Below are positions 615 through 27,416 of a DNA stretch of 27,598 nucleotides, piece by piece; position 1 is the first letter of the stretch; each line of letters opens with the position of its first letter. The translations under genes and the position numbers were made by a program. The notes under the pieces were generated by a model. The model was not told the origin of the DNA. It ran no database searches and saw only the letters and a list, made by a program, of their open reading frames with translations. Origin of the DNA: a virus; IMG/VR virus record IMGVR_UViG_3300035698_007128, positions 1-27,598 of that record; one strand, written 5' to 3'.

Positions 615-923
615 TTAGTCTACCAACTGTTCTTTCAGCATATCGGCAGTCTCTTGGCTGACTGTAATAGTTACCATCTTCTCTTTCTTACAGGTTGCTT
701 TGATGAATTCTTTCTCGGTGTACTCCTCACCTTCAATGAAGTAGTACTCCCCCCCAGAATCAAACGTAGCAGCAGGACCATCAAGTCGATGTCGTTCACC
801 TTCTTTGAACCATGCTTTGCTATCAACATTATCAATAGCAGGACCATCTATCCGATGTAAACGACCATTCTGATACCATCTTTGACCCCCATCCTCTGCC
901 ACCATTACTTCATACGTTTCCAT
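615..923 (-). CDS. HRxDGPA-repeat family protein, copy B
   Basis: 102 residues starting METYEVMVAEDG. It has two repeats (QNGRLHRIDGPA and EGERHRLDGPA), then YYFIEGEEYTEKEF and the tail KMVTITVSQETADMLKEQLVD. Its ATG overlaps the stop of copy C (TAATG), and its Shine-Dalgarno (AGGAGA) lies inside the last codons of copy C. It is the middle member of the tandem array at 1-1249. The sequence is close enough to the other copies to show recent duplication. The function is unknown; similar repeat proteins are common as uncharacterised accessory genes in large phages. Confidence 0.85.
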   Translation of the reverse strand: METYEVMVAEDGGQRWYQNGRLHRIDGPAIDNVDSKAWFKEGERHRLDGPAATFDSGGEYYFIEGEEYTEKEFIKATCKKEKMVTITVSQETADMLKEQLVD

Positions 924-8232: not shown

Positions 8233-9273
8233 CTACCAACTATTTCCCTCTGATGCTTTCTTACAAAAATGTAAGACTCTCATCACGATACCAAGATAAT
8301 CCATCTTATCAACAATACTCGAACGAACCCAATTCCTGTCCAGAAACTCGCATTTTTCGACAGCTTCGCAACAACTAACAACATCATCGTGGCAGAAGAA
8401 GCCATTGATATGAGGCTCAATGAATGAACAAATACCTCCATTGTATGTAGCCACTACTGGAACTCCGTACATCATAGCCTCTTTGGGGGCCTGTGGTGAG
8501 CAGTCACAGATGTTTGGAAGGTGGATAAAGCAGGAGGCATTGTAGAATACATCATCTCTGCCATCTACCAACTCACCATGGAAGTTTACAGCCCTACGGA
8601 ACCCATTGAAATACTCTTGGTCGTCAATACGCCCATACACATCAAGGGTCTTTCCTAGACGTTTGCAAGCCTCTGCTGCAATATGAACCTGTTTCATGGG
8701 ATGGATACGGCCAACAAACAGCGGGTTTCCCGTATTGTCTAATGCTCGATCTACTTCAATTGGTGGAATGAAGTTAAAGATGGATGGACCATTCACATTA
8801 TCATTGAATCTTGCAAACTCTTTACTCAGATAAATCTTATTCCTTACCTCATCATGTGGGTACTTCTTGTACGGATCACCCCCCATAATAGAGACTACAT
8901 TGTCAAAAAACTGTCCAGCTAGGTGGAACATACTATTGTCAATGATGCAGTCATATTTGGTGTGATTCTCCTTCAGTTGCTCAAACAGATTCACTTCATA
9001 ATTTGCATCATTTACCTTTGTCTCGTACACCCGAATATTTGAAAGATCGTCAAAATAATAAGTAATTTTACGGGCAAATTCATCTACTGTTGAAACATCA
9101 ATAGGTGAAGTCAAAATACCATCAGCAGTACCTAATCCGGCATACACATCCAAGGAATCAAATAAATAGTACTGTTTTAGTACCTTAATGAAATGGTGAA
9201 GGAATCGCTCTGATCCACCATAACCTTTTGGTGGGATACTATTCTCAGGACATGCTAGTATTGCTAATTTCAT
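8233..9273 (-). CDS. Family 4-like glycosyltransferase (GT-B fold)
   Basis: 346 residues. The N-terminus has KLAILACPENSIPPKGYGGSE, typical of GT4 enzymes whose Gly-rich loop contacts the acceptor or nucleotide sugar. The C-terminal domain has FVGRIHPMKQ (start of the donor-binding Rossmann fold), a GRIDD turn and PKEAMMYGVPVVATYNGG, equivalent to the EAMACGxPVVA donor-binding motif. It transfers a sugar from a nucleotide donor, acceptor unknown. Its start overlaps the Ntn hydrolase gene (TAATG). With two other transferases and a deacetylase it forms a carbohydrate island that may modify phage virions, phage DNA or the host surface. Confidence 0.85.
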   Translation of the reverse strand: MKLAILACPENSIPPKGYGGSERFLHHFIKVLKQYYLFDSLDVYAGLGTADGILTSPIDVSTVDEFARKITYYFDDLSNIRVYETKVNDANYEVNLFEQLKENHTKYDCIIDNSMFHLAGQFFDNVVSIMGGDPYKKYPHDEVRNKIYLSKEFARFNDNVNGPSIFNFIPPIEVDRALDNTGNPLFVGRIHPMKQVHIAAEACKRLGKTLDVYGRIDDQEYFNGFRRAVNFHGELVDGRDDVFYNASCFIHLPNICDCSPQAPKEAMMYGVPVVATYNGGICSFIEPHINGFFCHDDVVSCCEAVEKCEFLDRNWVRSSIVDKMDYLGIVMRVLHFCKKASEGNSW

Positions 9274-9812
9274 TATAACTCACAATATGTTATGGGGCTA
9301 CTTACTCCGGCAGAGAAGAACTCTGCACACTTTACTGAATCAATGACAATCTTTTTCTTGTTCTTGCGGTTCTTTGTCCCATGCAAGTATCCAAGGGAAT
9401 AGGACTCACCACACCCCACAGAGTCATACCCACATAAAGACTCCCCCACCTGATAGTCTTCGTCAATCCGAAACAACCTACCCCTATAGCCTAGTAGGAA
9501 GCAGCCCCCAGTTTCCTCACCATTGACCGTTGTGCTAAATCCCCCATCTTTTAATGTTTTCCTAACAACATCAATCAACTTTGTGACCACATACTCATAA
9601 GAATCCATCCCAAGGGGATGCTTCGGGGGCTTCAGATTGAATCTAAGTAATTGACCCATACGGAAGGAAGAGGTAAATCCAAGAACCATCTTCTTGCCTA
9701 TCTTGAATACCTTCTCATCCCTTCGAATACTAATATCATATCCGGCAACCCCTGCCGAATCACCGGCCATGTAAACCTTCTTACCATCAGTCAATGCTGC
9801 AATACAGGTCAC
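9273..9812 (-). CDS. HslV/proteasome beta-like Ntn hydrolase
   Basis: 179 residues starting with GTG, after a strong AGGAGA site. After removal of the initiator Met the protein begins TCIAALTDGKKVYMAGDSAG. Counted from that Thr, the proteasome-type catalytic set is in place: Thr1, Asp17 (AGDS) and Lys33 (RRDEKVFKI). Further on, VLGFTSSFRMGQ and a YDSVGCGESYSLG block match the GxGG-type segment near Ser129 in HslV and proteasome beta subunits. Length matches HslV (about 175). These enzymes form ring-shaped threonine peptidases that work with an unfoldase; no HslU-like ATPase is visible in this window. It lies between a methyltransferase and a glycosyltransferase. Substrate and partner are unknown. 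Confidence 0.8.
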   Translation of the reverse strand: MTCIAALTDGKKVYMAGDSAGVAGYDISIRRDEKVFKIGKKMVLGFTSSFRMGQLLRFNLKPPKHPLGMDSYEYVVTKLIDVVRKTLKDGGFSTTVNGEETGGCFLLGYRGRLFRIDEDYQVGESLCGYDSVGCGESYSLGYLHGTKNRKNKKKIVIDSVKCAEFFSAGVSSPITYCEL

Positions 9813-15054: not shown

Positions 15055-15578
15055 CTAATCACTTCCCAACGGCTGTTCCATGAACCATGTTTATCAATAT
15101 CTTTCAAATAGTCAACAATCTCACCCAAAGTCTCGAAGTAGTAATCAGGATGAACCAGTCCGACAATCCACCCCGGAATCGTGTGGAACCCCCTTGGGGC
15201 ATAAATCAGGACTGGTTTCTTTTGCCCCACGGCAATCACAATCTCATGTGTAGTCCCATAGGTGGGGATATCTACATCCAAGAAAGCAATCAAAAAATCA
15301 GATTTATCAACCATACGCAAATCAGGGCCAATGATTTTATGCTTGACATAGTAATGAGCCTTCTCGTATTGCTCTAACTCCCTATACTCTTTGTACTTCT
15401 CAAGCTCGGTATCCAATCCTTCTGTAATAGAACCCGGCTTATCAGTAGGATCAAAAAACGAAAGATCAATCCCCCCCTTAGAGATAAGACCCCTCAGAGA
15501 CTTTCTCCAATCTCTACCCCCATCAGACAAAACCTCAATTGGGCCTGCAAGATATCCAATCGCACCCTTCAACTTCAT
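15051..15578 (-). CDS. Nucleoside 2-deoxyribosyltransferase-like protein
   Basis: 175 residues. N-terminal GYLAGPIEVLSDGGRDWR matches the YLAGP-type opening of nucleoside deoxyribosyltransferases and related hydrolases. DFLIAFLDVDIPTYGTTHEI with IAVGQKKPVLIYAPR matches the segment in which a Glu (here in THEI) attacks the deoxyribosyl bond. Relatives exchange or remove bases on deoxynucleosides or their monophosphates. It is translated just before the GMP reductase (ATGA), and its ATG follows AAAGGA. The precise reaction is uncertain; hydrolysis of deoxynucleotides is an alternative. Confidence 0.7.
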   Translation of the reverse strand: MKLKGAIGYLAGPIEVLSDGGRDWRKSLRGLISKGGIDLSFFDPTDKPGSITEGLDTELEKYKEYRELEQYEKAHYYVKHKIIGPDLRMVDKSDFLIAFLDVDIPTYGTTHEIVIAVGQKKPVLIYAPRGFHTIPGWIVGLVHPDYYFETLGEIVDYLKDIDKHGSWNSRWEVIR

Positions 15579-16195
15579 TACAATTCCTTTACAAGGCTAA
15601 TACCATCAGCTTGACTGACCATGAATCCCTTACCATCAACAATCTCTTCTAGAATCTCTTTAGAGTGGGACACCATAATGATCTGTAAATCAAGCATATC
15701 TGCAAGTTTATGAATCATCTTACCAAATTCAGTGTGACTTAAAACACTATGCTTCCCCGGTTCATCAAGAATGAACAAGGGGGCAGGCTTAGGATTCATC
15801 AGAGAATACATCCCCAATCGTAGGGCCAATGAAGCCACATCCAGTGGTCCACCCCCATCTTCGTTCATGGGATCGTACTTCTCACCCCCCTTGATATACC
15901 AAAAAGTGACCTCTGTTTGGTTTCTCTTGATCTCAAAATCAATACAAAAACCATAATCCTCACCATAAACAGATGAAAGAGCCAAGGACGCTACCTCCTC
16001 CAGATACTCCTTTACTTGTCCCTGTGTGATAGACATTACATCGTTCACAACATCCCTAGCTCTTTCAAAGTCAATAAGTAAGTTTGTCAACTCTTTTTCT
16101 TTAAGAATAATGTTGGAAAAATCTAGTTCCAAACTTTCCTTCTTGAGCTTCTGCTTATTCAAAACATTACGAATTTTTAACGTATCAAATGTCAA
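15578..16195 (-). CDS. Rad50/SbcC C-terminal half (split gene)
   Basis: 205 residues. After a short coiled-coil stretch (about 10-60) it has the second half of an SMC/Rad50-type ATPase: signature motif region EDGGGPLDVASLALRLGMY (112-130), Walker B PLFILDEP (Asp144, Glu145), D-loop and H-loop VSHS (His177). It has no Walker A; that is in the ORF at 17716. It must pair with that protein to form an active nucleotide-binding site. The start is TTG at 16195 with GAGGAAG upstream, encoded inside the end of the HRxDGPA gene; an in-frame stop lies four codons upstream, so no longer form exists. It lies about 1.5 kb downstream of the N-terminal half. Confidence 0.85.
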   Translation of the reverse strand: MTFDTLKIRNVLNKQKLKKESLELDFSNIILKEKELTNLLIDFERARDVVNDVMSITQGQVKEYLEEVASLALSSVYGEDYGFCIDFEIKRNQTEVTFWYIKGGEKYDPMNEDGGGPLDVASLALRLGMYSLMNPKPAPLFILDEPGKHSVLSHTEFGKMIHKLADMLDLQIIMVSHSKEILEEIVDGKGFMVSQADGISLVKEL

Positions 16196-16493
16196 ATTGC
16201 TTCCTCAACATATCTCGTGACTCTTCACTGAGTGTAATTGTCACCATCTTTTTCTTACTGGTCTTCTTTTTGAATTGCTTCTCAGTATATTCAACCCCTT
16301 CAATCCAATATTCTTTGGTTCCACTAGCCCTAATTATTGCAGGACCATCTAAACGATGTCTCTTCCCATTCTTCCACCATGCTTTAAAGCCACTATCATC
16401 AATATAAGCAGGCCCATCAAGTCGATGCCATTGGCCATTCTGCTTCCATTGTTGTGAATCTTCGTCTACTATAACCTCATACGTTTCCATCAT
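16185..16493 (-). CDS. HRxDGPA-repeat family protein, copy D
   Basis: 102 residues from ATG 16493 (MMETYEVIVDED). I reject the longer frame to 16523 because it begins inside the promoter. Two repeats (QNGQWHRLDGPA and NGKRHRLDGPA), IEGVEYTEKQF and the tail KKMVTITLSEESRDMLRKQFDI. It has its own consensus promoter and AAGGAG leader, and sits between the coiled-coil gene and the Rad50 C-terminal half. Its last codons provide the Shine-Dalgarno of the Rad50 half. Function unknown. Confidence 0.85.
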   Translation of the reverse strand: MMETYEVIVDEDSQQWKQNGQWHRLDGPAYIDDSGFKAWWKNGKRHRLDGPAIIRASGTKEYWIEGVEYTEKQFKKKTSKKKMVTITLSEESRDMLRKQFDI

Positions 16494-16521
16494 ATTCTCC
16501 TTAGTGTTATTGAACAATAGC

Positions 16522-16549
16522 ATTATACTACATATATACTCTATGTCAA
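16522..16549 (-). promoter_or_regulatory. Sigma70-type promoter P2
   Basis: On the minus strand: TTGACA (16549-16544), 16-bp spacer, TATAAT (16527-16522), both consensus. The TGA stop of the upstream coiled-coil gene is the TGA of TTGACA. The leader from TATAAT to the AAGGAG site is identical to that of P3 over about 34 bases. It drives copy D and probably everything to the left, including the Rad50 C-terminal half. Confidence 0.85.
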
Positions 16550-16812
16550 GACAAATCTATGTTATTCTCTTTGATGAAGGTATCGACCTCTGTGTAAAGG
16601 GAATCCAGTTCACCCTGAAGTACAACAATCTCCTTGTCATACCCTTCCAGAAGAACTCCAACTTCATCCATTGAACCCACATCAAACTCTTCTAGGATGG
16701 ACTCCTCTAGCTGCTTCTGTCTTCCTTGGAGCTCTGTCTTCTCTTTCTCCATACTAGAGATATGAGTCTTGATCTTATTGATGTCTTTGACTTTTTGTTC
16801 TGTGTTATTCAT
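16546..16812 (-). CDS. Coiled-coil protein in the Rad50/Mre11 cluster
   Basis: 88 residues from ATG 16812 (MNNTEQKVKDINK...), one base after the Mre11 stop; the longer frame to 16848 is the shadow of Mre11. Heptad patterns with many Lys, Glu and Leu fill most of the chain (ISSMEKEKTELQGRQKQLEE; GYDKEIVVLQGELDSLYTEV), with a break around VGSMDEVG. No CxxC hook. It may supply a coiled-coil arm for the split Rad50 or be an independent partner; the sequence alone cannot decide. Confidence 0.7.
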   Translation of the reverse strand: MNNTEQKVKDINKIKTHISSMEKEKTELQGRQKQLEESILEEFDVGSMDEVGVLLEGYDKEIVVLQGELDSLYTEVDTFIKENNIDLS

Positions 16813-16813
16813 T

Positions 16814-17719
16814 CTATGATACAAACCCTTCTTTAATAATTCCAACAATTTTTTTATCTATTTTATTCTTCTCTACATATACATCTAGGTTATCAAAGAA
16901 ACTTGTGCCAATACTGCCTTCTTTTCGCAGTTTTGCAACAAATTCATCCAATATCTTATTCTCTTTTTTCTTCTCATCATTCTCGAAAAATGGGTTATCC
17001 TTTACAGACAGATACTCTAATTCGTATTCCAGTGTCTCTGTATCGAAAATAACAACATGAGGCTTGTGCTTGCGGTCTCGATCACTTCTCGACAACCTAA
17101 GCATCGCTCCACAATTGATTAGAGTGACATCATCAGCCTCATACTCATACGAGTAGTGGTAATCACCCAGAAGATACAGATTGTATCCAGCATACTTTTT
17201 CACATATCCTGATGGTGAAATGAGTGGCTGGCCGGGATACAGTTCATTATCCCCCACCATTGCATGAGAAATACAGATATTGAATCGTTTATCATCCTTT
17301 GGCATCTTGGGTGTTTCACCATACGCATGACCGTAAATATCGACATTACCTATTGACATCCCATAATCAGCACAATCAACCAACTTGAATAAATCAGGTA
17401 AGGCCGTAGCAATGATCCTCAAGGCTGATTCTTCCTTGTACTTCAGGCTATGGTACAACATATCATGCTGTCCATGAATAGCATACACAGGAATATTGTG
17501 TTTTCGGATAAGCTCGATGATATCACAAATCAACCCCTTGGAAGGACTTGGCTTATCAAAGAAGTCACCAGCCTGTAGAACAGCCCTGCAAGCTCGCTCA
17601 CAGGCCGTTGAGAGTACATTGTCTAATTTCTGTAGGCATACTGCCCTAAAGTCCTCTTCGACTCTCCCAGAGGGTGTGGTGTCCTTTACATGACCATCTC
17701 CTAGTAGACAGAACTTCAT
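16814..17719 (-). CDS. SbcD/Mre11-type nuclease subunit
   Basis: 301 residues of the calcineurin-like metallophosphoesterase family. Motifs: GDGH (Asp8, His10), AGDFFD (Asp52), GQHD (82-86 region), SHA (His152) and LGDYHY (His188). Family members cut DNA ends and hairpins with Mn2+ and pair with a Rad50/SbcC ATPase; phage versions (T4 gp47) process ends for recombination-dependent replication. The GNH motif reads GQH (Gln84), replacing the usual metal-binding Asn. Its ATG overlaps the stop of the Rad50 N-terminal half (ATGA), so the two are translated together. Confidence 0.85.
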   Translation of the reverse strand: MKFCLLGDGHVKDTTPSGRVEEDFRAVCLQKLDNVLSTACERACRAVLQAGDFFDKPSPSKGLICDIIELIRKHNIPVYAIHGQHDMLYHSLKYKEESALRIIATALPDLFKLVDCADYGMSIGNVDIYGHAYGETPKMPKDDKRFNICISHAMVGDNELYPGQPLISPSGYVKKYAGYNLYLLGDYHYSYEYEADDVTLINCGAMLRLSRSDRDRKHKPHVVIFDTETLEYELEYLSVKDNPFFENDEKKKENKILDEFVAKLRKEGSIGTSFFDNLDVYVEKNKIDKKIVGIIKEGFVS

Positions 17720-18756
17720 TCTATGACCCTATCACAAAAAGGACAAACTTCAAATTCGTTATATAACAATTCATACTCTTCTTCCAAATCTAAAAGTCCA
17801 TCGACCTTCGTTTTAATTGACTCTGCATACCTATTATACTCGGAGAACAAAGAAGAAACCCTCTCCTTCTCCTTTTTAATATCTGCAATCATACCACAAT
17901 CGGATAAAAACAAGTCAATCGTCTTTTGAACTCCCCCACTATCCTTGATATTCCCAATACGAACAACCAAACTATTGTAGTTTGTATACAACCCACTGAT
18001 CTTATCACGCTTAAGACTAAGTGCTTTCAGCTTTTCTAGTTTGTCTTCAACAGCATCAAAGTCGAAAATGGGGACAACAAGACGATCAAATGATTCTACA
18101 ACAACCAAGTATTTAGCATATGTGGCAGAAAGAGCCTCCTTCTTACTACACACATTAGATAACTTCTCTTCTAGGGTCTCTACAGAGGACACCAAGGCTT
18201 CTAGGGCGTCAATATGCTGTAAAGAGGCAAGGGCTTCTGATAGCTCCTGCTTCTTCTCAGCATGGTACTCAATATCCTGTTTGACCTTTCGCTTAGACGA
18301 ATTCAGGTTCTTTACAACATTCTCCGCTTTCTCTAATCGTGTAACCTCATTGATGATGCTTGCAGCCTTACCCCCAGACTCATTCAATAGAAAGAAGTTG
18401 TCGAACTGTTCCTGAAGGTTGATATCGTTAAAATTAACAAACTCTAGGATAGCTTCGGGGACATTACCCCCCAAAGCGGTATAGGTTTCCCCATTGAATT
18501 CATAAGAACTTGTAGTCTTTGTCCTTGTGAAGATGATCTCTTTGCTATCCACAGTTACGATGATCTTACATTGCTTCTGTCCCCTACGGATATATGAACT
18601 ACCCCTTGGCTTCTGCATGAAGACTAACTTCAATGCTCTGATGATTGAAGTCTTCCCCGATCCATGTGAACCACAAATGACATTGATGTTCTTGTTCAAA
18701 ACAATCTCTGTGTCTTTGTGGGACTGGAAGTTGATTAACCTAATTTTTTCAATCAT
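17716..18756 (-). CDS. Rad50/SbcC N-terminal half ending at the zinc hook
   Basis: 346 residues. Walker A is GSHGSGKT (29-36). A Q-loop region follows (FNDINLQEQFDNFFLL), then a long coiled coil (about 140-330) that ends in CPFCDRVIE (Cys338, Cys341). CPxC is the zinc-hook motif normally found in the middle of Rad50. The protein stops five residues after the second Cys, so the returning coil, signature motif and Walker B are missing; the last two are encoded by the ORF at 15578. The start has TTGGG and a further AAGGA upstream. Overlap with Mre11 (ATGA) means the split is not an assembly end effect. Confidence 0.9.
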   Translation of the reverse strand: MIEKIRLINFQSHKDTEIVLNKNINVICGSHGSGKTSIIRALKLVFMQKPRGSSYIRRGQKQCKIIVTVDSKEIIFTRTKTTSSYEFNGETYTALGGNVPEAILEFVNFNDINLQEQFDNFFLLNESGGKAASIINEVTRLEKAENVVKNLNSSKRKVKQDIEYHAEKKQELSEALASLQHIDALEALVSSVETLEEKLSNVCSKKEALSATYAKYLVVVESFDRLVVPIFDFDAVEDKLEKLKALSLKRDKISGLYTNYNSLVVRIGNIKDSGGVQKTIDLFLSDCGMIADIKKEKERVSSLFSEYNRYAESIKTKVDGLLDLEEEYELLYNEFEVCPFCDRVIE

Positions 18757-18770
18757 CCCAATTCAAGTCC

Positions 18771-19544
18771 TTATTCTATGGTTACTCTGTATTCGTTTCC
18801 ATCTCTATTTTTATAATGAACTACATTACCAAATTCGTCATATACTAACCACTCTCTAAAACCACGAGGACTCCCCCACCACATACAAAGAGTACAATCC
18901 CAAAAATTCATTTGATGCAATATACGACCTAATCCATCATATTCGTACTGCCGCTCACGGACAAAAGACCCCCAATAATTCTTTTGGCTTACTACATCCC
19001 CTGATTCATTATATTCATAAAAATCCTCAAACCCATTACAGTCAATGAGATAAACATTATTACCATGTTCATCATACTCTTTCCAATACTCAAAACCATT
19101 CCAATCAATACAATGAATCTCATTCCCATGTTCGTCATACTCTTTCAAACGATCAAACATATTTGGGATATTTATGTCATCGAATTCTTTGTCTTCAGAC
19201 ATATTATATTCTTCTTCAGGGACAATCCTCAATACTTTGAATTTATCCGTAATTAACTTAGTCCCCCAGACAGTATCACAAGAGACAAATACTTCCCCAA
19301 GTACAGCAATCTCTAACATTACAAAAGTAGAATAATCAAAATCAAACAAGTATCTTGTGGCAAGATCACTGATGATTTGTTTACGTTTTTCCCGATCTGA
19401 CTGATAAAAGAAATACTCATCCATATTCTTACAAAAATGCGACCCACGATTATGCCACATTTCACCTTCAAATGAGTAAGTCTTCCCAACTTCATAAGTG
19501 ATATTAATACATCTTCCTTTGAATGTACCCATGTATGCTATCAT
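18771..19544 (-). CDS. Protein with DUF7666-like N-terminus and YDxxGN (RHS-like) repeats
   Basis: 257 residues. The first ~125 (GTFKGRCINITYEVGKTYSF ... WHNRGSHFC ... DYSTFVMLEIAVLGEV ... VWGTKLITDKFKVLRIVP) recall a phage and bacterial domain of unknown function with a YEVGKTY and GFHxC pattern. From ~130 on there are repeats of about 20 residues: LKEYDEHGNEI, WKEYDEHGNNV, FYEYNESGDVV, QYEYDGLGRI, LVYDEFGNVV. These resemble YD/RHS repeats, which form beta-strands in bacterial toxins and surface proteins. No signal peptide or toxin domain is visible. AAGGA plus TTTGGG precede the ATG. Function unknown. Confidence 0.75.
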   Translation of the reverse strand: MIAYMGTFKGRCINITYEVGKTYSFEGEMWHNRGSHFCKNMDEYFFYQSDREKRKQIISDLATRYLFDFDYSTFVMLEIAVLGEVFVSCDTVWGTKLITDKFKVLRIVPEEEYNMSEDKEFDDINIPNMFDRLKEYDEHGNEIHCIDWNGFEYWKEYDEHGNNVYLIDCNGFEDFYEYNESGDVVSQKNYWGSFVRERQYEYDGLGRILHQMNFWDCTLCMWWGSPRGFREWLVYDEFGNVVHYKNRDGNEYRVTIE

Positions 19545-19592
19545 CCCAAATCCTTATCTCAGGTGTATTCTTCTATTGTACTCACAATTACC

Positions 19593-19772
19593 TTAAACAT
19601 GCCAACAGTCAGAATCGCACTCAATGAGGGTATCAATACATTGTTCCAAATTTTCTTGGTCTTCGATGGGGAGGTCCATGATTGCTCTTTGAATGTCTTC
19701 ACATTGTGACAAATCTTCTTGGTATTCGATGGGTAGGTCCATGATTACTCTTTTAATGTCTTCTAAGTCCAT
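19593..19772 (-). CDS. Small acidic protein with internal duplication
   Basis: 59 residues (MDLEDIKRVIMDLPIEYQ...). It consists largely of two copies of a 21-residue unit (EDI[KQ]R[VA]IMDLPIE[YD]QE[DN]L[SE]QC) followed by an acidic tail with three Cys (CIDTLIECDSDCWHV). Probably two helix-loop-helix units. It starts three bases after the remnant family copy; the ribosome binding site is weak (GACAG), which lowers confidence. No family is recognised. Confidence 0.55.
   Translation of the reverse strand: MDLEDIKRVIMDLPIEYQEDLSQCEDIQRAIMDLPIEDQENLEQCIDTLIECDSDCWHV
19647..19763 (-). repeat. 63-bp imperfect tandem repeat inside a coding region
   Basis: Two units, 19647-19700 and 19710-19763, offset by 63 bases and differing at only a few positions. 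They encode the 21-residue duplication in the protein at 19593-19772. The in-frame length shows that the duplication was tolerated as protein. Confidence 0.8.
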
Positions 19773-19774
19773 TT

Positions 19775-19834
19775 TTAATTCTGTCTACAATACTGTGTTC
19801 CGTCGTTGCCCACAGCTACTTCATACGTTTCCAT
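19775..19834 (-). pseudogene. Truncated HRxDGPA-family remnant, copy F
   Basis: A 19-codon frame, METYEVAVGNDGTQYCRQN, then a stop. It matches the first ~20 residues of the family (compare METYEVMVAEDGGQRWYQN in copy B) and breaks off exactly where the first repeat would begin. Its ATG overlaps the stop of copy E (TAATG) with AGGAGA upstream, the same junction as between copies C and B. So a former tandem copy has been lost except for its 5' end. Confidence 0.75.
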
Positions 19835-20148
19835 TATAGTTCTCCTAGTTGAGTCTTCAGCATATCAGCAGTCTCTTGGCTGACTGTAATTGTTACTGTC
19901 TTCTCTTTCTTGCTGGTCTTCTCGATGAATTGTTTCTCAGTGTAATACTCACCATCAATGTAGTAATATTCCTCACCATTACCCCAAATCGAAGCAGGAC
20001 CATCAAGTCGATGTTGTTTTCCTTCCTTATACCATGATTTGTACCCACCTGAATCAATATAAGCGGGGCCATCAAGACGATGTAGCTTACCATTTTGACG
20101 CCATCTTTGATTCCCATTCTCTTCTACAGTTACTTGATACGTTTCCAT
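19834..20148 (-). CDS. HRxDGPA-repeat family protein, copy E
   Basis: 104 residues from ATG 20148 (METYQVTVEENGNQRW). The longer frame to 20211 starts inside the promoter and is rejected. Two repeats (QNGKLHRLDGPA and EGKQHRLDGPA), IDGEYYTEKQF and the tail VTITVSQETADMLKTQLGEL. It is closest to copy C: leader and the first ~50 coding bases are nearly identical. Leader AAGGAGAATAAGAAAATG and promoter P3 lie upstream; the last codons carry the Shine-Dalgarno of the remnant copy F. Confidence 0.85.
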   Translation of the reverse strand: METYQVTVEENGNQRWRQNGKLHRLDGPAYIDSGGYKSWYKEGKQHRLDGPASIWGNGEEYYYIDGEYYTEKQFIEKTSKKEKTVTITVSQETADMLKTQLGEL

Positions 20149-20182
20149 TTTCTTATTCTCCTTAGTGTTATTGAACAATAGC

Positions 20183-20211
20183 ATTATACCAAATCTTGTG
20201 CTGTTTGTCAA
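20183..20211 (-). promoter_or_regulatory. Sigma70-type promoter P3
   Basis: On the minus strand: TTGACA (20211-20206), 17-bp spacer, TATAAT (20188-20183), a perfect consensus promoter. It starts four bases after the stop of the HNH gene and drives copy E and the genes to its left. From TATAAT to AAGGAG it is identical to P2. Confidence 0.88.
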
Positions 20212-20214
20212 GAC

Positions 20215-20661
20215 TTAATTATCCCAATTCAAATCCTTGAAGTTAAATTTATTCAAATTATCGAAAACAGCTTTAAGGTCCGGCCAATCTACTTTTTTCT
20301 TCGGCCTACTTGAAAACTCTTCGATACGACGCATACACCAACCATACTGTTCTGGTCTATTCGTCTTCAACCAGTCTGCAAACCACAATGCATTCTTATG
20401 GGCCGACCTTTTCCCAAACTTGTGGCAAGCGGAACATAATGTGATTCCTACTCTTGGATTGAAGGAATGTAAGAAGTAGGCCTCTTTTGGCAATAGGTGG
20501 TGTGCTTGTGTGAATCGGTCTGACCCACAAATGGTACACTTATAATCACTGTAATTCCTTATCGTGATTGACCACAAACGGTAACATTTTCTCATCCAAT
20601 ACTGTGAATGGACATCCTCTTTATTCTTTTGGAGCTTCGACTTCTTCTTCAGTTTTGACAT
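20215..20661 (-). CDS. HNH endonuclease-like protein
   Basis: 148 residues. A Lys-rich start, then a zinc-supported HNH core: CTICGS, FTQAHHLLPK (catalytic His region), NPRVGITLCSACHKFG (Asn and second Cys pair with His). Such proteins are phage homing or accessory endonucleases, or structure-specific nucleases. It overlaps recA by 41 bases in another frame; no internal ATG has a better ribosome binding site, so the start is tentative. Lying directly after recA, it may take part in recombination or be a free-standing homing enzyme. Confidence 0.75.
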   Translation of the reverse strand: MSKLKKKSKLQKNKEDVHSQYWMRKCYRLWSITIRNYSDYKCTICGSDRFTQAHHLLPKEAYFLHSFNPRVGITLCSACHKFGKRSAHKNALWFADWLKTNRPEQYGWCMRRIEEFSSRPKKKVDWPDLKAVFDNLNKFNFKDLNWDN

Positions 20662-23462: not shown

Positions 23463-23699
23463 CTATGAAATACCTAGTTGGGATTTCAGCATATCTGCTG
23501 TTTCTTGACTTACTGTGATAGTAACGGTCTTTTGTGTCTTCTTGATGAAATCTTCATAAGAGTATCCCCGGCCTTTAATGAAGTATTCTTTTTCCCCATT
23601 AGGGTAAGTAACAGCAGGCCCATCTAGACGGTGTAGATAACCTTTCTGCTGCCAAAATTGCCCATTTTCATTCACATCTACTCTATACGTTTCCATCAT
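23463..23699 (-). CDS. HRxDGPA-repeat family protein, copy G (short form)
   Basis: 78 residues (MMETYRVDVNENGQFW...). It has a single full repeat (QKGYLHRLDGPA), then PNGEKEYFIKGRGYSYEDF and the tail VTITVSQETADMLKSQLGIS. It is one repeat shorter than the others. The leader AGGAGAATATGATG is the same as that of copy D. It sits alone between the polymerase and the SSB gene, with a possible promoter on each side. Confidence 0.85.
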   Translation of the reverse strand: MMETYRVDVNENGQFWQQKGYLHRLDGPAVTYPNGEKEYFIKGRGYSYEDFIKKTQKTVTITVSQETADMLKSQLGIS

Positions 23700-27102: not shown

Positions 27103-27133
27103 ATTCTCCTTCGTATTATTCCGATTGTTAGTA

Positions 27134-27245
27134 CGCCCCCATCAGGTTTCGAACCAAAGTCTCTGATTCCGTCTACCAATATCGCGTGTACCTTGCGATT
27201 CGGATCAGAGCAAAAACCAGTGTTTTACCATTAAACTACAGGGGC
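27134..27245 (-). tRNA. tRNA-like gene with apparent 41-nt insert in the anticodon loop
   Basis: Read on the minus strand: acceptor GCCCCTG pairs with TGGGGGC (two G-T pairs), followed by G73; no CCA is encoded. D-arm GTTT-AATGGTA-AAAC is canonical. T-arm TTTGG-TTCGAAA-CCTGA has a canonical loop but one T-T mismatch. The anticodon stem can form as CTGGT (27220-27216) with ATCAG (27167-27163), but 48 bases lie between the strands instead of 7. The loop starts TTTTG, so a UUG (Gln) anticodon is possible if the insert is removed. The insert has its own stem ATCGC/GCGAT. Alternatives: a decayed tRNA or a tRNA-like RNA. Isotype is not assigned. Confidence 0.55.
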
Positions 27246-27416
27246 AGAGAGATACGGGACGGTCGCTACTCCGTCTTGGAAGTACCACTTATCCGAGGAT
27301 GTTATCGGATCAACTAGTATGTAAGAGCGGACACCACAAGTCTTACTTGCAGCTTTCCAACCAACTATTCTTACTATTGCTGTGTGTCTACGATTTTCCA
27401 CACCGCCATATCTCAA
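27231..27416 (-). CDS. Possible small protein or structured leader between P4 and the tRNA-like gene
   Basis: A 61-codon frame with TTG start (RYGGVENRRHTAIVRIVGWK... ending VPYLSAPVV) whose stop lies inside the tRNA-like gene. No convincing ribosome binding site and no ATG. The same stretch can form three successive hairpins: GTAAGA/TCTTAC (27321-27346), ATCCGA/TCGGAT (27291-27310) and GACGG/CCGTC (27258-27275). It may be coding, a structured RNA leader, or both. Confidence 0.35.
   Translation of the reverse strand: MRYGGVENRRHTAIVRIVGWKAASKTCGVRSYILVDPITSSDKWYFQDGVATVPYLSAPVV

What the first reader, a model, noticed from the sequence alone, without database searches (positions are those of the whole stretch)
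15578..18756. Rad50/SbcC split exactly after the zinc hook, with Mre11 between the halves
The N-terminal half (Walker A, coiled coil, CPFC hook) stops five residues after the hook. The C-terminal half (signature motif, Walker B, H-loop) is a separate gene 1.5 kb downstream. Between them lie Mre11/SbcD, an 88-residue coiled-coil protein and an accessory cassette with its own promoter. In known Rad50/SbcC and T4 gp46 both ATPase halves are on one chain. All key motifs survive, so the two chains probably assemble in trans, with the small coiled-coil protein possibly as an extra arm. Different promoters could set the ratio of halves.
Basis: partly seen in the sequence, partly recalled or inferred. 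Interest (0 to 1): 0.78.

Follow-up and report, generated by a model that had tools for sequence, protein, structure and literature searches.

The report
Rad50 split at its zinc hook
In this virus the DNA-break-repair protein Rad50 is made as two separate chains cut just after its zinc hook, and the same cut, with Mre11 and a small helical protein alongside, recurs in over 100 distantly related viruses and plasmids, so it looks like an old working design of a universal repair machine rather than a broken gene.

Summary
On the minus strand lie a Rad50 N half (17716-18756) stopping five residues after a CPFC hook, Mre11 (16814-17719), an 88-aa coiled-coil protein (16546-16812), an inserted repeat-protein cassette, and a Rad50 C half (15578-16195). 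The split is not local damage. Across 123 dereplicated loci no N and C half share a chain. 132 of 133 complete N halves end 2-25 residues after a CxxC; 82 loci have the order N-Mre11-coil-C. A coil profile trained on some loci found the coil between Mre11 and the C half in 44/44 unseen loci and nowhere else. Eight of nine Bacillota plasmids with a C half match an Mre11-Rad50N query over nearly its full length; in the four fusions read, Mre11 is fused to an N half that still ends at the hook, with a separate C half. Three genomes carry the halves far apart. Best explanation: an obligately split, four-subunit Mre11-Rad50 complex whose ATPase assembles in trans. The N arm consists of 47-residue repeats whose number varies while C half and coil stay constant, so the far arm probably lacks a matched return strand. 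The promoter-ratio idea is not supported. No open paper found describes this. Assembly is inferred, not shown.

The parts
17716..18756 (-). Rad50 N half, 346 aa: N lobe (Walker A, Q-loop NLQEQFD), helical arm of 47-residue repeats, zinc-hook CPFC at residues 338-341, stop five residues later
   Evidence: phrog_16465, 5.5e-29; only G29, K35, C338, C341 invariant in 45 sequences
16814..17719 (-). Mre11/SbcD-like nuclease, 301 aa; phosphoesterase residues D8 H10 D52 H85 D86 H152 H188 invariant; profile match to known Mre11 covers mainly the nuclease domain
16546..16812 (-). 88-aa coiled-coil protein (predicted helix-short turn-helix), conserved fourth component; ATG follows Mre11 stop by one base
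16522..16549 (-). consensus sigma-70 promoter TTGACA-16-TATAAT, part of the inserted cassette, could also drive the C half
16185..16523 (-). inserted HRLDGPA-repeat cassette gene (112 aa), paralogous to copies elsewhere in the window; not part of the conserved module
15578..16195 (-). Rad50 C half, 205 aa, TTG start: 73-residue helix (residues 5-77) then C lobe with signature-like GGG, Walker B LDEP, H-loop
   Evidence: (phrog_15167, 8.6e-23 over full length)

Best explanation
This is an obligately split Mre11-Rad50 complex of four gene products. The N half supplies the P-loop lobe, the arm and a half zinc hook at its free C-terminus. The C half supplies the signature, Walker B and H-loop lobe, preceded by a helix that likely packs antiparallel on the base of the N arm. 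The two halves join in trans into one Rad50-type ATPase head; two heads bind an Mre11 dimer; two hooks can bridge through zinc. The conserved small coiled-coil protein is most likely a structural subunit of the arm. The complex probably processes DNA ends for recombination-dependent replication or repair, as T4 gp46/47 does. Shown: the split, its conservation, retained motifs, the partner genes, arm repeats. Inferred: trans assembly, stoichiometry, hook bridging, coil role and biological function.
For: Conserved split: 132/133 N halves with a stop end 2-25 aa after a CxxC, no N+C chain in the family; 114 N clusters at 90% identity, 82 loci in order N-Mre11-coil-C. The N search used a pattern near the N-terminus (NFQSH), so it did not select for the hook end. 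Hook cysteines and Walker A residues are the only invariant N columns; D144, Q171, H177 invariant and E145, G116 nearly so in the C half; Mre11 catalytic residues invariant. The best PDB matches of the C half include the separate C-terminal chain of crystallised P. furiosus Rad50 (3qkr_B, 1ii8_B, 1f2t_B), and Foldseek agrees for both halves (1f2u_A; 9a9j_B, 1f2t_B): the head can form from two polypeptides. The same nine plasmids carry both pieces. Halves co-occur when unlinked: Magritte, Tunturi_5, Jeotgalibacillus plasmid. One C half per long record, 32/32. Coil in place in 44/44 unseen loci, 0 hits elsewhere among 1,875 short ORFs. Suggestive covariation along one antiparallel diagonal between the N arm base and the C helix (3 of 400 global shuffles as high).
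Against: No complex was modelled and nothing was tested at the bench. The covariation is weak: up to 11 of 300 within-clade shuffles reach it and other N windows give similar maxima. The signature motif (GGG) and D-loop differ from canonical Rad50. The arm is far longer than the C-half helix, so a canonical two-stranded coil up to the hook is not possible from these two chains alone. Magritte's N half lacks a CxxC, so the hook is not essential everywhere.
Confidence: 0.85

Rival explanations
1. The halves do not form a Rad50. One or both act alone, for example as a decoy that inhibits the host SbcCD by occupying its subunits.
For: Phages are known to inhibit host SbcCD and RecBCD (own knowledge). 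The C half and N half are separate genes and sometimes unlinked.
Against: Catalytic residues of all three enzymes parts are invariant across very divergent sequences, and N, C and Mre11 co-occur almost without exception. In the ABC/SMC fold P-loop and Walker B strands lie in one core sheet, so neither half alone makes a nucleotide site (established knowledge of the family).
Confidence: 0.06
2. The same split complex serves element-against-element defence or competition (Lamassu-like) rather than recombination or repair.
For: N half and a plasmid C half match LmuB profiles weakly (9.8e-14 and 1.6e-7); some carriers are plasmids.
Against: No LmuA-type effector; the partner is a Mre11 nuclease. 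In L002 the genes sit with polymerase, clamp loader, RecA-like and RuvC-like genes (read from the ORFs); in the window next to a UvsX-like recombinase.
Confidence: 0.06
3. The chain is joined after transcription or translation by a split intein, trans-splicing intron or frameshift, so the mature Rad50 is one chain.
For: Such gene pieces are known in phages (PMC3322345, introns and inteins in phage IBB_35).
Against: N halves end with the hook and a short tail, with no intein-like extension. Rfam finds no intron in the window. Mre11 lies between the halves, or they lie tens of kilobases apart.
Confidence: 0.02
4. Decay, sequencing error, or a local split caused by insertion of the repeat-protein cassette.
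For: The cassette is a duplicated insert in this window.
Against: The split is present in about 120 loci without this cassette, including compact operons such as Microcystis phage Mvi-JY20, and in complete phage and plasmid records.
Confidence: 0.01

Closest known systems
Archaeal Rad50 with Mre11 (P. furiosus, M. jannaschii)
   Same: Best PDB profile matches of both halves and of Mre11; same motifs, zinc hook, Mre11 partner.
   Different: Natural Rad50 is one chain with a long antiparallel coil; here the chain ends at the hook, the arm has 47-residue repeats, and there is an extra coil protein. The crystallised P. furiosus head (1f2t, 1ii8, 3qkr chains A and B) is a man-made analogue of this split.
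T4 gp46/gp47 and E. coli SbcCD
   Same: Viral or bacterial Rad50/Mre11 pair for DNA-end processing; phrog_77 and phrog_100 match weakly.
   Different: Both ATPase lobes on one chain (established knowledge).
Mre11-Rad50 fusion proteins (PMC3175470, 2011)
   Same: Mre11 fused ahead of Rad50, as in the Bacillota plasmids here. The paper notes for Bacillus phage 0305phi8-36 and Anaerostipes that one P-loop NTPase segment of SbcC was not observed.
   Different: That paper does not report a separate C half. The split found here would explain the missing segment, but that phage's record is not held and was not checked.
PHROG families 16465 (exonuclease) and 15167 (ATPase)
   Same: Existing database families that correspond to the N and C halves.
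   Different: Listed as unrelated families, not recognised in the PHROG entries as halves of one protein.
Short-coil single-chain relatives: ASRP (NF045487) and Lamassu LmuB
   Same: N half matches along most of its length below curated cut-offs.
   Different: Single chains; LmuB works with other partners.
Phage genes in pieces made by homing endonucleases
   Same: A conserved protein encoded as two functional chains; an AP2/HNH gene sits between N half and coil in the Bacillus phage.
   Different: Those have intact relatives; no intact relative of this family was found, and most loci have no endonuclease there.

Membership tests
Rad50/SbcC | Walker A P-loop | tested here: met
   G29 and K35 invariant in 45 N halves
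Rad50/SbcC | Walker B, H-loop | tested here: met
   D144 and H177 invariant, E145 nearly, in 48 C halves
Rad50/SbcC | ABC signature motif LSGG | tested here: inconclusive
   Aligned position reads GGG (window DGGGPLD); G116 nearly invariant
Rad50/SbcC | CxxC zinc hook | tested here: met
   C338, C341 invariant; 132/133; zinc binding itself not testable
Rad50/SbcC | both ATPase lobes on one chain with the hook between them | tested here: not met
   No N+C chain in the family
Rad50/SbcC | partner Mre11/SbcD nuclease encoded alongside | tested here: met
Rad50/SbcC | ATP-dependent head engagement and DNA tethering | not testable with these tools
   needs biochemistry
Mre11/SbcD | phosphoesterase motifs with metal-binding D and H residues | tested here: met
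   D8 H10 D52 H85 D86 H152 H188 invariant in 46; best PDB match 1ii7
Mre11/SbcD | capping domain and C-terminal helix-loop-helix | tested here: inconclusive
   Best PDB match ends at profile position 206 of 300; C-terminal DUF7588 match below cut-off
Lamassu (LmuABC) | LmuB-like SMC protein with LmuA effector | tested here: not met
   Weak LmuB similarity only; no LmuA hit among the proteins scanned
Homing-endonuclease gene in pieces | intact homologue in close relatives | tested here: not met

The most novel reading that the evidence does not exclude
A four-subunit Mre11-Rad50 machine in which the arm is an independent module. The N chain carries a self-supporting arm built from 47-residue units that is lengthened or shortened by whole units and bears the zinc hook on its free end, while the C lobe is a detachable half that binds only the arm base and could be exchanged or withheld to switch the ATPase. 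The small coiled-coil protein acts as a clamp at the arm joint. This would mean Rad50 function does not need one antiparallel coil reaching from head to hook.
Probability: 0.4. Interest if true: 0.87.

Novelty: new variant of a known kind. Interest (0 to 1): 0.74.

Why it matters
Rad50 is found in all cells and its single-chain hairpin, with the hook at the turn, is taken as a basic design rule. A widespread natural version with the turn cut open makes long-standing questions testable: what the return strand and the intact hook turn are for, and whether head engagement is controlled by how the two lobes are joined. Separate chains can be mixed, mutated and titrated independently. It also names several sets of generic phage genes (exonuclease, ATPase, hypothetical protein) as parts of one machine, and offers an explanation for a published oddity, an Mre11-Rad50 fusion lacking one NTPase segment.

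Tried and rejected
Single-protein search of viral contigs with the window C half found no relative; profile searches did. Broad alignments A10 and A11 had no stretch conserved enough to search with. Complex modelling was not available: one protein per job, two jobs used. The coil protein has no PDB match of weight (best E 0.013). Tree-distance correlations among N, C, Mre11 and coil were all 0.4-0.8, which shows shared inheritance but not contact. Inter-chain covariation was only suggestive. Bacillus phage 0305phi8-36 is not held. Promoter-set ratio of halves: rejected as a general feature. Frameshift, intein, intron, decay: rejected. No evidence was found for natural fusions among N, C and coil. 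Literature searches for split Rad50 or SbcC returned nothing relevant.
Full report
Observation. The window is a 27,598-base virus record. On its minus strand the order of transcription is Rad50 N half (18756-17716), Mre11 (17719-16814), an 88-aa coiled-coil protein (16812-16546), a repeat-protein cassette (16523-16185) and the Rad50 C half (16195-15578). The N half ends ...CPFCDRVIE. N half, Mre11 and coil are tightly coupled (ATGA and TAGAATG junctions). The C half starts at a TTG with a good ribosome site inside the end of the cassette gene. Pfam and PHROGs put the N half with Rad50-type ATPases (phrog_16465, 5.5e-29), Mre11 with SbcD (phrog_100, 6.9e-18), and the C half with phrog_15167 ATPase over its full length (8.6e-23).

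The split is conserved. A profile of C halves recovered 52 viral loci and a profile of N halves, searched by a pattern near the N-terminus, another 80; 8 came from genome assemblies, two of them single weak matches that include a canonical SbcC. Many repeat the same contig; after clustering at 90% identity there are 114 N-half clusters and 123 representative loci. Of 133 N-half frames with a stop in the locus, 132 end 2-25 residues after their last CxxC; the exception, Microbacterium phage Magritte, has no CxxC. The only chain with both halves is L066, an ordinary 1,172-aa SbcC. Of the representative loci, 82 have the order N-Mre11-coil-C, 4 Bacillus-type loci N-coil-C-Mre11, and most of the rest are cut by contig ends.

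Cultured phages and plasmids. Microcystis phage Mvi-JY20 has a compact four-gene operon. Bacillus phage vB_BboS-125 has an AP2/HNH gene between N half and coil. Nine Bacillota plasmids carry a C half, and the same nine carry Mre11 and N half. In the Geobacillus, P. polymyxa, Aneurinibacillus and Jeotgalibacillus plasmids Mre11 is fused ahead of the N half, whose chain still ends 18-24 residues after CxxC, with the C half separate. In Alkaliphilus Mre11 and N half are separate neighbours. Two further Paenibacillus or Brevibacillus records match the fusion query over its whole length but were not read individually. In three genomes the halves are far apart: Magritte (gene 155 and gene 2), Tunturi_5 (126949-128406 and 19071-19736) and the Jeotgalibacillus plasmid (374049-376460 and 450128-450727). 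In 32 long records there is exactly one C half each. AAA_23 finds one N-type match above cut-off in 30; Tunturi_5's was found with the N profile instead, and P. polymyxa pSC2 has an additional 710-aa AAA_23 frame that was not examined.

Motifs. In 45 N halves the invariant columns are G29, K35, C338 and C341. In 48 C halves D144, Q171 and H177 are invariant, E145 and G116 nearly so. In 46 Mre11 proteins D8, H10, D52, H85, D86, H152 and H188 are invariant, among others. The parts are therefore under selection as enzymes.

Homology and fold. The N profile's best PDB matches are Rad50 N-terminal segments, the C profile's include 3qkr_B, 1ii8_B and 1f2t_B, the separately crystallised C-terminal chain of P. 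furiosus Rad50. AlphaFold2 gives the C half a confident model (pLDDT 92, pTM 0.78): a 73-residue helix (5-77) then the C lobe; Foldseek's top hits are Rad50 C-terminal chains. The N half model (pLDDT 82, pTM 0.40) has the N lobe and four arm helices, 142-178, 182-230, 237-272 and 274-334, whose relative placement is not resolved; Foldseek's top hits are Rad50. From established knowledge of the ABC/SMC fold, the P-loop and Walker B strands belong to one core sheet, so the two halves must meet to make a nucleotide site.

The arm. N arms show a 47-residue tandem repeat: mean self-similarity peaks at offset 47 (z 25) and has a second local peak at 94 (z 11), while 35 and 49, expected for plain heptads, are below background. 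The consensus of the common 191-residue arm shows three units with the same hydrophobic spacing. Arm lengths cluster near 140, 190 and 237, one unit apart. C-half and coil lengths hardly vary (s.d. 5.5 and 3.2 residues against 28 for the arm; there is a weak arm-C rank correlation of 0.36). A return strand matched to the whole arm is therefore unlikely. Inter-chain covariation shows one antiparallel diagonal between N 142-178 and C 18-54 (3/400 global shuffles as high; 0 to 11 of 300 within clades), which fits the C helix packing on the arm base up to the first arm break, but other windows reach similar values, so this is only suggestive.

The small coiled-coil protein. A profile built from 45 first-round members found a hit between Mre11 and the C half in all 44 unseen loci with both genes and none elsewhere among 1,875 short ORFs. 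The motif (F/W)G(C/V)xSxxEA looks like a helix-turn-helix with a capping box (reading). It is a dedicated partner; its structural role is inferred.

The cassette and the promoter. The 112-aa cassette gene is one of several HRLDGPA-repeat genes in the window (12 copies of a 60-nt unit), and its promoter and leader are duplicated at 20151-20194. Other loci lack it. It is best seen as a local insertion; the promoter may drive the C half here but is not a general feature.

Novelty. No curated family covers the halves as a split Rad50, and ten searches of open papers found no description (among them). PMC3175470 reports an Mre11-Rad50 fusion in Bacillus phage 0305phi8-36 in which one NTPase segment was not observed; the present system would explain that, untested. 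Subscription journals and preprints were not searchable.

Verdict. A real, widespread, obligately split Rad50 with Mre11 and a fourth coiled-coil component: a new variant of the Mre11-Rad50 kind. Trans assembly is strongly implied but not demonstrated.

Noticed in passing
window 27133-27246, - strand: tRNA-Gln(TTG) with a 41-nt insertion in the anticodon loop (ARAGORN with introns allowed; Rfam tRNA 43.9 bits). The insertion ends pair CTCTGAT/ATCAGAG. Unusual for a phage that also has consensus sigma-70 promoters; could hint at an archaeal-type intron.
   Followed up: partly
window 615-923, 923-1705, 16185-16523, 19834-20211, 23463-23699, - strand: Dispersed family of HRLDGPA-repeat proteins with a shared C-terminal tail (VTITVSQETADML); 12 copies of a 60-nt unit. 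No Pfam or PHROG match for the copy tested.
   Followed up: partly
window 9273-9812, - strand: 179-aa protein starting MTCIAALTDGKKVYMAGDSAG, which resembles by eye the N-terminus of HslV/proteasome-type hydrolases; no Pfam or PDB match.
   Followed up: partly
N halves of all loci, arm region: 47-residue tandem repeat of the arm, gained and lost in whole units; apparently a distinct helical repeat.
   Followed up: yes
L152 2079-4604, L151 2247-4655, L153 1567-4380, L158 1050-3461: Natural Mre11-Rad50N fusions on Bacillota plasmids that still end at the hook and keep a separate C half.
   Followed up: yes
L007 8001-9053 and L148 284-934: Microbacterium phage Magritte: N half without CxxC and a distant C half, a hookless version of the split.
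   Followed up: partly
window 20215-20661, - strand: HNH endonuclease-like gene directly after the UvsX-like recombinase gene.
   Followed up: no
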